DNA of 64,000 bases from Limnoperna fortunei. Lineage: Eukaryota > Mollusca > Bivalvia > Mytilida > Modiolidae. Position numbers and translations under genes: made by a program. This document shows, in pieces, positions 22,601-25,600 of the stretch (position 1 is its first letter; every line of letters begins with the position of its first letter). The notes beneath the pieces were generated by a model. It made no database searches. It worked only from the letters and a program-made list of their open reading frames with translations, and was not told the origin of the DNA. The stretch is from the NCBI GenBank assembly GCA_944474755.1, contig OX104114.1, positions 24,699,220-24,763,219 of the forward strand, given 5' to 3'.

Positions 22601-25600
22601 TTGTCTGTCTATCATATCTATTAAATATTCACATTTCTTTTCAATCTTTGCCTTTAAAACTACTTGGTTAGTTGAAGCCTGTTGATGTAAGTTGATGTCT
22701 GTTATGATGTTGTGAGGCCTTCTACAGAGTTTCGTCATTCAACATGTTTCTCTTACCTTGTTTTCTAGGCTAGAACAGTATTAAGACTTATTGTCTACTG
22801 TGTATTTTCTCCATAATAATGTAAAAATGCATTGTTTAGAGTAGCAATGTCTCCACTTATGGTTAAAAAAAAAGATGTTTTTTAGGACCAAATACCAGAC
22901 TTGTCTGATAATTGTGTTGAGATGTATTTGGAGACCCACATGCTTTTTTTCAGGACCAAATATCACACCTGTATGATCATTTTGTTGAGATGTGTTTGGA
23001 GACCCACATTCTTTTTTTTTCAGGACCAAATACCAGACCTGTATGATCATTATGTTTAGATGTGTTTGGAGACCCACATTCTTTTTTTCAGGACCAAATA
23101 CCAGACCTGTTTGATCATTTTGTTGAGATGTGTTTGGAGACCCAAATGTTTTTATTTTTCAGGACCAAATACCAGACCTGCTTGATCATTTTGTTGAGAT
23201 GTGTTTGGAGACCCACATGTTTTTATTTTTTCAGGACCAAATACCAGACCTGCTTGATCATTTTGTTGAGATGTGTTTGGAGACCCACATGTTTTTATTT
23301 TTCAGGACCAAATACCAGACCTGTTTGATCATTTTGTTGAGATGTGTTTGGAGACCCACATTCTTTTTTTCAGGACCAAATACCAGACCTGTTTGATCAT
23401 TTTGTTGAGATGTGTTTGGAGACCCAAATGTTTTTATTTTTCAGGACCAAATACCAGACCTGCTTGATCATTTTGTTGAGATGTGTTTGGAGACCCACAT
23501 GTTTTTATTTTTTCAGGACCAAATACCAGACCTGCTTGATCATTTTGTTGAGATGTGTTTGGAGACCCACATGTTTTTATTTTTTCAGGACCAAATACCA
23601 GACCTGTTTGACCATATTGTTGAGATGTGTTTGGAGACCCACATGTTTTTATTTTTTCAGGACCAAATACCAGACCTGCTTGATCATTTTGTTGAGATGT
23701 GTTTGGAGACCCACATGTTTTTATTTTTTCAGGACCAAATACCAGACCTGCTTGATCATGTTGTTGAGATGTGTTTGGAGACCCACATGTTTTTATTTTT
23801 TCAGTACCAAATACCAGACCTGTTTGATCATTTTGTTGAGATGTGTTTGGAGACCCAAATGTTTTTATTTTTCAGGACCAAATACCAGACCTGTTTGATC
23901 ATTTTGTTGAGATGTGTTTGGAAACCCAAATGTTTTTATTTTTCAGGACCAAATACCAGACCTGTTTGATCATTTTGTTGAGATGTGTTTGGAAACCCAA
24001 ATGTTTTTATTTTTCAGGACCAAATACCAGACCTGTTTGATCATTTTGTTGAGATGTGTTTGGAGACCCAAATGTTTTTATTTTTCAGGACCAAATACCA
24101 GACCTGTTTGATCATTTTGTTGAGATGTGTTTGGAGACCCAAATGTTTTTATTTTTTCAGGACCAAATACCAGACCTGTTTGACCATTTTGTTGAGATGT
24201 GTTTGGAGACCCACATGTTTGCTTCACAATGGTTCCTGACTCTGTTTACGGCCAAATTTCCTCTTTATGTGGTGTTCCATATTTTGGACTTGTTTTTATC
24301 AGAGGTAGGTTACTACTTTGTGTCACAGGTGATTCTTTGTGAAACAAACAAAAAATGTGTTGTATTCAGTAAGGAATTCTTTTGGTGTATGCATTTCTTT
24401 ACAACTTTACAATATATAATTTTATATTTATACAAGAACCTGACTTCAGATGGAAAATTACTTTGACCACCAATGTTTTTTGTTGATGATGACTCTTTTG
24501 TATACAAAACTTCATAAGTTCAGGAATTTTAAATCATAAATTGACATTTGGTGGTTTGATATTTGTGAAATTGATTAACCATGAACTCCACAGATATGGA
24601 TAACCTGTTCATGTTTTTTGGTTCAAAAGTTTTTATAGCACCAGCAATTTGCAGGTATATCATTGCTGCCTGTTATAATGGATGTTAACTGGAGTACTCC
24701 TTTGTAACCTATGGTCGTTTTTATCAGAAATACTACACCGGCAGTTTAGGCATATGTTTTTATCAGAACTACTACACTGGCAGTTTAGGCATATTTGTTT
24801 GTCTATACCATGGGGAAGTAAAATATAAGTAATAAATAAGACGACGATGATTTTTATATTGTGTTTACATATCTACTGTTAATTTTCAGGGTGTGACATT
24901 TTTGTTTAGTGTGGCATTAGCACTATTGAAGGTAGGTATACCTGACATTAGAATTTATCTATTGGTATATAATTACATTCCTTCTGTTAAGTATACAATT
25001 CATAGCTTTTGATAGGTTAGGATTACTTCTAGTAAATGAAAAATTGAAGTTTCTTTAGTTGACAGAAGTAAAGAGCAAGTGCTTGCTTGACAATGACAAC
25101 AGTTCATGGACAACTTGTAGTAATTGAAATCAACCAAAACGTCTTATTTCCGATTACTTTTATTAATTTGTATATATGTCTTATCAGTTATGTTGCTTTG
25201 TAAAATGTTATGCAAATCATTAATAAATATGTTTACACTAACCAAAAATGAATTTTGCACAATTTTCAAGAAATTATTTTAAATAACTATTTTTCTGCAC
25301 GTTTAGTTGATGTGTACGATATGTCGAATAGACGATTTTTGGTAAAATTAGGGTAAAAAACATAGATAAGTCGAATTCTGTCCATAAGTTCGAGATATCC
25401 GTGACCATTAACTTTGGTAAGTATTCCAGCTCTAGAAAGATTCAATGTCACCAACCATATATTTGCAGGTAGTTAATATTTAGAATAAAATTGTTTAATA
25501 AATTTTGTTGAGGGGTAGATCATTATAAAATGTGTACGAAACTTCGCTTTAAAATGTCAGCGTCTGTGAAGGAGAAAAGTGTGGATTGAATGATGTCATG

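What the first reader, a model, noticed from the sequence alone, without database searches (positions are those of the whole stretch)
22886..24304. Exon-seeded array of 18 complete 3' splice-site modules in front of the real RABGAP1 exon
Seen: eighteen 68-72-bp units, each made of a polypyrimidine tract, a CAG acceptor and the first ~60 nt of the TBC exon; the 19th copy alone carries the rest of the exon and a donor. The duplication joint is at a short T-run shared by exon (CATGTTT) and intron (TTTTTATTTTTTCAG), which suggests slippage or microhomology. Inference: the spliceosome must choose among 19 near-identical acceptors, each with branch-point-like sequence (TTGAT, TTGAG) at 37-49 nt. I know of no standard feature class for a satellite made of splice acceptors inside a conserved gene.
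Basis: partly seen in the sequence, partly recalled or inferred. Interest (0 to 1): 0.9.

Follow-up and report, generated by a model that had tools for sequence, protein, structure and literature searches.

The report
Tandem splice-acceptor array in mussel gene
In front of one exon of a conserved bivalve gene (RABGAP1) the end of the intron plus the start of the exon has been copied 18 times, yet the protein found in sequence collections joins to the last copy; it is a mollusc case of a repeat type described in amphioxus, and about five other genes of the same genome, TBP among them, appear to carry similar arrays.

Summary
Observation confirmed. Eighteen 68-72 bp units (22886-24160), each the first 57 nt of a RABGAP1 exon plus a T-rich tract and CAG, precede the only complete exon copy (24161-24304), which alone has a donor. 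A protein identical to this gene's exons (P0061) joins exon 21410-21535 directly to 24161: the last acceptor is used. Of the 18 other acceptors only #18 would keep the frame; 17 give stops. Changes among copies look unconstrained: 15 of 18 distinct changes are non-synonymous, 84% expected. [quoted passage not shown] New here: a mollusc example, and not alone. A genome pattern search and small fetches show the same anatomy at exons of TBP, an MFS_5 transporter, an ATP9A-like flippase (25 acceptors seen), a TSP1 protein and probably BLTP1, plus one unnamed exon. Best reading: minisatellites seeded at 3' splice sites, tolerated because the acceptor beside the complete exon wins. Branch points, NMD and copy-number polymorphism are untested.

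The parts
21410..21535 (+). upstream RABGAP1 exon, donor GAG|GTATGT at 21536
   Evidence: ungapped join to human RABGAP1; translation identical to P0061
22875..22885 (+). old end of the intron (ATGTTTTTTAG), acceptor of copy 1; ATGTTT shared with the exon at 24215-24220
22886..24160 (+). array of 18 units (57 nt of exon + 11-15 nt T-rich tract ending in CAG)
22886..23091 (+). units 1-3, the diverged 5' edge of the array; unit 3 has an in-frame TAG
   Evidence: edit distances and translations
23024..23588 (+). units 3-6 and 7-10: a repeated four-unit block (edit distances 3, 0, 0, 1)
   Evidence: distance matrix
24089..24160 (+). unit 18 (72 nt): the only extra acceptor that would keep the frame (+24 aa)
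24161..24304 (+). copy 19: the complete exon (144 nt, phase 0), the copy present in the protein P0061
24305..24310 (+). donor of the exon (GAG|GTAGGT, 7 of 9 consensus positions); the other GTs from 24018 to 24304 reach at most 5 of 9 (the first 16 units were not scored)

Best explanation
A boundary minisatellite ('mirage'). A short duplication joined the start of the exon back to the end of the intron, probably at ATGTTT; slippage or unequal exchange then expanded it to 18 extra copies. The extra copies are not used for protein. The transcript is spliced from 21535 to the last acceptor, because only that one lies beside the complete exon and its donor (exon definition: 144 nt against 216-1419 nt for the others). 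Rare use of the other acceptors would mostly give stop-containing RNA open to nonsense-mediated decay. Shown: anatomy, absence of visible coding constraint in the copies, the product from acceptor 19 (protein level), and the same anatomy in other genes. Inferred: birth mechanism, how the acceptor is chosen, NMD.
For: Anatomy and single locus. P0061, 1027 aa on a 5,779-base contig, is 100% identical over all 554 aa of the exons queried and reads [29 protein letters not shown], while the gene spans 59 kb of genome and a genome search showed no uninterrupted copy (28 matches, 45 of 55 candidates scored). No insertion form: 2 of 15 candidates passed, P0061 and P0062, both without the insertion. 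17 of 19 acceptors give a stop in the array or exon. 15 N: 3 S distinct changes, 83%, against 143 of 171 possible (84%). Units 3-6 repeat as 7-10 and several units are identical, as in turnover of minisatellites. The genome is minisatellite-rich: 15 arrays with at least 5 copies and period at least 20 in 20 x 10 kb of contigs C4 and C5 (75 per Mb), 14.6% in tandem repeats. Same anatomy at TBP, MFS_5, ATP9A-like, TSP1 and probably BLTP1 exons.
Against: No RNA reads were seen; the P0061 contig is taken to be an assembled transcript because of its length and source label (inference). A collection clustered at 90% hides minor isoforms and would miss RNA removed by NMD. One assembly with one copy of the locus: polymorphism and assembly errors cannot be tested. 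The TSP1 array does not fit the frame pattern: all 4 of its tested acceptors keep the frame, so some such arrays could add peptide.
Confidence: 0.82

Rival explanations
1. The array is a regulatory acceptor ladder: upstream acceptors are used at a controlled rate and the resulting stop-containing RNA is destroyed, so copy number tunes RABGAP1 output.
For: 17 of 19 acceptors give stops; the acceptors of copies 2-18 have fair tracts (12-15 of 17 pyrimidines).
Against: Stops follow from unit lengths not divisible by three and need no selection; no sign of constraint on the copies; similar arrays sit in unrelated genes, and one of them (TSP1) keeps the frame at all 4 tested acceptors.
Confidence: 0.07
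2. Alternative protein isoform: acceptor 18 adds 24 aa ([24 protein letters not shown]) inside the TBC domain.
For: Unit 18 is 72 nt and open.
Against: The search with this isoform found only two proteins, both without it; the insert would interrupt a domain aligned without gaps to human RABGAP1; 7 of 18 units are divisible by three but only one extra acceptor keeps the frame.
Confidence: 0.04
3. Assembly artefact: the array is an invented or mis-sized expansion.
For: Tandem arrays are often mis-sized; no reads were available.
Against: Units carry distinct substitutions and indels in an irregular order; similar arrays occur at other genes.
Confidence: 0.04
4. Early stage of intron gain, as in the potato RdRp gene: copies become exon-like and new introns arise between them.
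For: Published case of a duplication across an intron-exon boundary giving a new intron (PMC4974935, abstract read); model in PMC3087553 (passages).
Against: Donor-like GTs in the last two units match only 5 of 9 positions; P0061 shows no extra exon.
Confidence: 0.03

Closest known systems
'Mirages' of amphioxus (Adh3, globins BflGb6 and BflGb9, TnC, PGBD5)
   Same: Tandem minisatellite-like duplication of an intron/exon boundary; BflGb6 duplicates the intron 3' end plus the 5' part of exon 2; regular splicing reported; inner units homogenised (PMC3087553 and PMC3902484, passages).
   Different: Here a bivalve and RABGAP1; 18 extra copies (BflGb6: 6 and 3 units in two haplotypes); unit 68-72 bp (BflGb6 150-160 bp; Adh3 10-72 bp). 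Haplotype and somatic instability, reported there, could not be tested here.
Intron gain by tandem duplication across a boundary (potato RdRp, PMC4974935)
   Same: Duplicated segment crosses an intron-exon boundary and carries putative branch site, tract and acceptor (abstract).
   Different: A duplication that made a new intron; here many copies and no new intron in the known product.
Variable minisatellites at human exon-intron boundaries (PMC2812944)
   Same: Repeat arrays at exon-intron boundaries that bear on splicing (passages).
   Different: On average 30-bp units repeated 4 times, in genes of segmental duplications; there the repeats can change the transcript.
Tandem acceptors (NAGNAG) and mutually exclusive exon arrays (recalled, no call)
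   Same: Several acceptors compete for one donor.
   Different: NAGNAG acceptors lie 3 nt apart; mutually exclusive exons each have a donor, which the units scored here lack.

Membership tests
mirage (boundary minisatellite) | tandem repeat whose unit spans an intron/exon boundary | tested here: met
   18 units + exon
mirage (boundary minisatellite) | regular mRNA from the authentic boundary despite the copies | tested here: met
   at protein level only: P0061; no RNA reads seen
mirage (boundary minisatellite) | copies keep splice signals (many, not all, in the published cases) | tested here: met
   AG kept before 19 of 19 copies
mirage (boundary minisatellite) | inner homogenisation with diverged cluster boundary | tested here: met
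   5' edge (units 1-3) diverged; units 4-18 without unit 7 are 0-5 edits apart; the 3' edge abuts the constrained exon and is not diverged
mirage (boundary minisatellite) | length instability between haplotypes or cells | not testable with these tools
   one match in one assembly
mutually exclusive exon array | each unit has its own acceptor and donor | tested here: not met
   GTs reach at most 5 of 9 donor positions in units 17-18 and the exon before its donor; other units not scored but near-identical
tandem-duplication intron gain | a new intron is spliced out between copies | tested here: not met
   P0061 contains one plain exon copy, (protein level)

The most novel reading that the evidence does not exclude
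In this bivalve lineage 3' splice sites are preferred birth places of minisatellites: the T-rich tract of acceptors seeds arrays genome-wide, so that dozens of conserved genes carry 4 to more than 25 tandem acceptors and the spliceosome still takes the one beside the complete exon, a natural multi-copy test of acceptor choice.
Probability: 0.4. Interest if true: 0.72.

Novelty: new member of a known kind. Interest (0 to 1): 0.55.

Why it matters
Arrays of nearly identical acceptors in front of one exon are a natural experiment on how a 3' splice site is chosen: position and exon context differ while local sequence hardly does. If conserved genes such as RABGAP1 and TBP bear them in one bivalve genome, splicing tolerates many decoys. 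It extends to molluscs a phenomenon that my searches found under this name only in amphioxus (with related human and potato cases), offers raw material for intron gain and splice variation, and warns annotators and short-read assemblers about false exons.

Tried and rejected
A boundary array at other exons of this gene: none of the 13 other exons tested in the window had a second self-hit; of 6 upstream exons tested, 5 had none and one had a second hit, from a 41-bp repeat inside the following intron.

Led nowhere: a kinase-family search as an unbiased exon sample (138 matches from 133 of 1098 candidates scored, largely long open frames and clusters of near-identical frames; its loci could not be cut). 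A donor-array pattern (AGGTAAGT) and a TTTTTTTAG pattern did not complete, so whether 5' splice sites seed arrays as often is untested. Arrays at C1:0.05 Mb, C2:41.99, C4:53.67 and C6:2.23 gave no clear exon. The unnamed exon of L040 had no Pfam family; its PDB hits were a pentatricopeptide repeat protein (E 1e-8, no stretch passing on its own) and y+L transporters (E 1.6 and 1.9), so I do not name it. One of the 12 proteins read (P0008) holds two copies of another part of this exon ([15 protein letters not shown]), not of the array unit; not followed up.

Limits of the enrichment test: places were grouped by eye; only the first part of the 263 rows was listed; matches overlap within arrays, so 263 against 46 is not a count of arrays; the split by unit length was made after seeing the data.

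Full report
What is there. The window lies in a genome of 1,335,373,924 bases in 285 contigs, at C4:24699220-24763219. The gene is RABGAP1: exons 21410-21535, 24161-24304 and 24890-24931 translate without gaps to human RABGAP1 4nc6 (E 3.4e-47), Pfam RabGAP-TBC 8.8e-27. The 12 introns between 17301 and 39314 are GT-AG and phase 0. The whole gene maps to C4:24679416-24738854.

The array. Nineteen copies begin after AG at 22886-24161. Eighteen are 68-72 nt: 57 nt of exon followed by a T-rich tract and CAG. The 19th is the whole 144-nt exon with the donor. TRF reports 19.0 copies at 94-95%. The left edge, ATGTTTTTTAG at 22875-22885, is the old intron end: its tract is the poorest (6 of 17 pyrimidines) and it alone is TAG. 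Intron ATGTTT (22875) and exon ATGTTT (24215) are the natural joint of the first duplication; a 6-mer recurs at a fixed spacing of 68 at 165 of 63,926 window positions, so microhomology is suggestive, not proven.

The copies are not visibly constrained. Against exon 19, the 18 copies show 18 distinct substitutions in 57 nt, 15 changing the amino acid (83%; 143 of 171 possible changes do so, 84%), one of them a stop in unit 3. Codon 8 is GAT in 17 of 18 units and GAC in unit 11 and the exon. Units 3-6 and 7-10 form a repeated block, and several distant units are identical: ordinary minisatellite turnover. Keeping AG in all 19 is not evidence of selection at this low divergence.

Which acceptor is used. 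Reading from each acceptor to the donor and on through the downstream exons, only #19 and #18 stay open; 17 of 19 meet a stop. A search of 5.8 billion proteins with the exon-joined sequence found P0061: 1027 aa on a 5,779-base contig, 100% identical over the 554 aa, with a single [20 protein letters not shown] between LERLME and ASQWF. Any acceptor but the last would leave at least one extra unit. Since the gene spans 59 kb and the genome search showed no uninterrupted copy (28 matches, 45 of 55 candidates scored), I take the contig as a transcript assembly (inference; its source label is 'lgn'). A search with the +24 aa isoform, limited to that region, returned 2 of 15 candidates, both without it. 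The read-through query returned 60 proteins, of which I read 12; none repeats the array unit, though one (P0008) repeats another part of the exon. These searches cannot see rare or decayed RNA.

How it probably works. The units have acceptors but, in the two units scored, no good donor (5 of 9 at best; the true donor 7 of 9). Only acceptor 19 bounds a 144-nt exon; the others would give 216-1419 nt. Exon definition (recalled, no call) would favour it. Branch points for acceptors 2-19 must lie in former exon sequence if they lie within about 60 nt, since each acceptor is preceded by a unit; TTGAT at 49-50 nt is a candidate, untested.

Not alone. I asked the whole genome for three TTTTTTCAG motifs at 49-79 nt spacing: 263 matches, against 46 for the reversed pattern, although the two 9-mers are equally common in the DNA I sampled (15 and 15 in about 282 kb, RABGAP1 array excluded). 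The listed rows, the first part of the 263, fall by my count in 16 places from C1 to C6:2.23 Mb; the control has 5 in the same span, p 0.027; counting only units of 50 nt or more, 13 against 1, p 0.002, or 13 against 2 if one ambiguous control place is counted (about 0.007, by hand). I read DNA beyond the match for 11 of the 16. In 7 the last copy runs on into an open frame, with a donor in 6 (the BLTP1 piece ended first): RABGAP1; TBP (5 copies, 51-54 nt; [33 protein letters not shown], Pfam TBP 3.1e-14, human TBP 1.5e-22); an MFS_5 transporter (15 acceptors in the pieces; Pfam 3.3e-10, no PDB hit); an ATP9A-like flippase (25 acceptors in 1.7 kb; no Pfam hit, only PDB hit E 0.0022); a TSP1 exon (4 acceptors; Pfam 3.1e-5); probably BLTP1 (8 copies of 66-67 nt in the piece, one of them without the AG; Pfam 1.9e-4, 19.7 bits against a whole-protein cut-off of 100, no significant PDB hit); and one unnamed exon (8 copies). 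Four of the 11 gave no clear exon (C1:0.05, C2:41.99, C4:53.67, C6:2.23 Mb). Counting the authentic acceptor, read-through keeps the frame open at 2 of 5 (TBP), 1 of 15 (MFS_5), 1 of 25 (ATP9A-like), 1 of 8 (unnamed) and, against my reading, 4 of 4 (TSP1) acceptors. For these other genes I have no transcript.

Is it expected? Twenty 10-kb samples from C4 and C5 hold 15 arrays of at least 5 copies (75 per Mb), 14.6% tandem DNA. A 71-nt unit laid at random in this window would cover one of about 28 boundaries with odds near 3% (by hand). With some 100,000 arrays in the genome (extrapolated by hand), boundary arrays must arise; the contrast with the control hints that acceptors are favoured seeds, but that test is small and partly post hoc.

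What is known. [quoted passage not shown] PMC3902484 (passage) adds PGBD5 and cites TnC. The original Adh3 paper is not held. PMC4974935 (abstract) and PMC2812944 (passages) are related. No mollusc case appeared in the listings of my searches, which cover open-licence papers only. So: a new member of a known kind, in another phylum, with many copies and several sister cases in the same genome.

Noticed in passing
G000 C3:4578700-4579400 (L039): TBP gene exon preceded by four extra acceptor copies (51-54 nt units).
   Followed up: yes
G000 C2:9564250-9565950 (L051, L045, L041), again C2:9567443-9567646: ATP9A-like P4-ATPase exon with 25 tandem acceptors of 63-65 nt in the DNA read; the same unit recurs 1.5 kb further on, so the array may exceed 3 kb.
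   Followed up: partly
G000 C2:41990850-41992650 (L050, L049): More than 1 kb of about 52-nt units, each acceptor + about 17 nt + GTAAAT-like donor: an array that looks like complete microexons, the last with GTAAGT. Coding nature untested; the DNA between the two pieces was seen only as pattern matches.
   Followed up: partly
G000 C1:52.06-52.09 Mb, C1:69.30-69.35 Mb, C6:18.35 Mb, C45 (L028): Dozens of closely similar kinase-like frames (many 258 aa, Pkinase profile 47-258) in clusters at about 1.1-1.3 kb spacing.
   Followed up: partly
window 1-310 and 32453-33429; L007; L020; L029 (by period only): A 146-bp satellite at several places on at least two contigs; within 10 kb upstream of the window start it recurs in three stretches.
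   Followed up: partly
L006 3342-3461: A 41-bp x 3 repeat begins 9 nt inside the donor end of another RABGAP1 intron.
   Followed up: no
window 43986-47777: A 74-bp x 51 array, 98% matches, downstream of the RABGAP1 stop; no gene assigned.
   Followed up: no
protein P0008: An unnamed RABGAP1-like frame with two copies of [15 protein letters not shown], a different part of the same exon; possibly another partial exon duplication.
   Followed up: no
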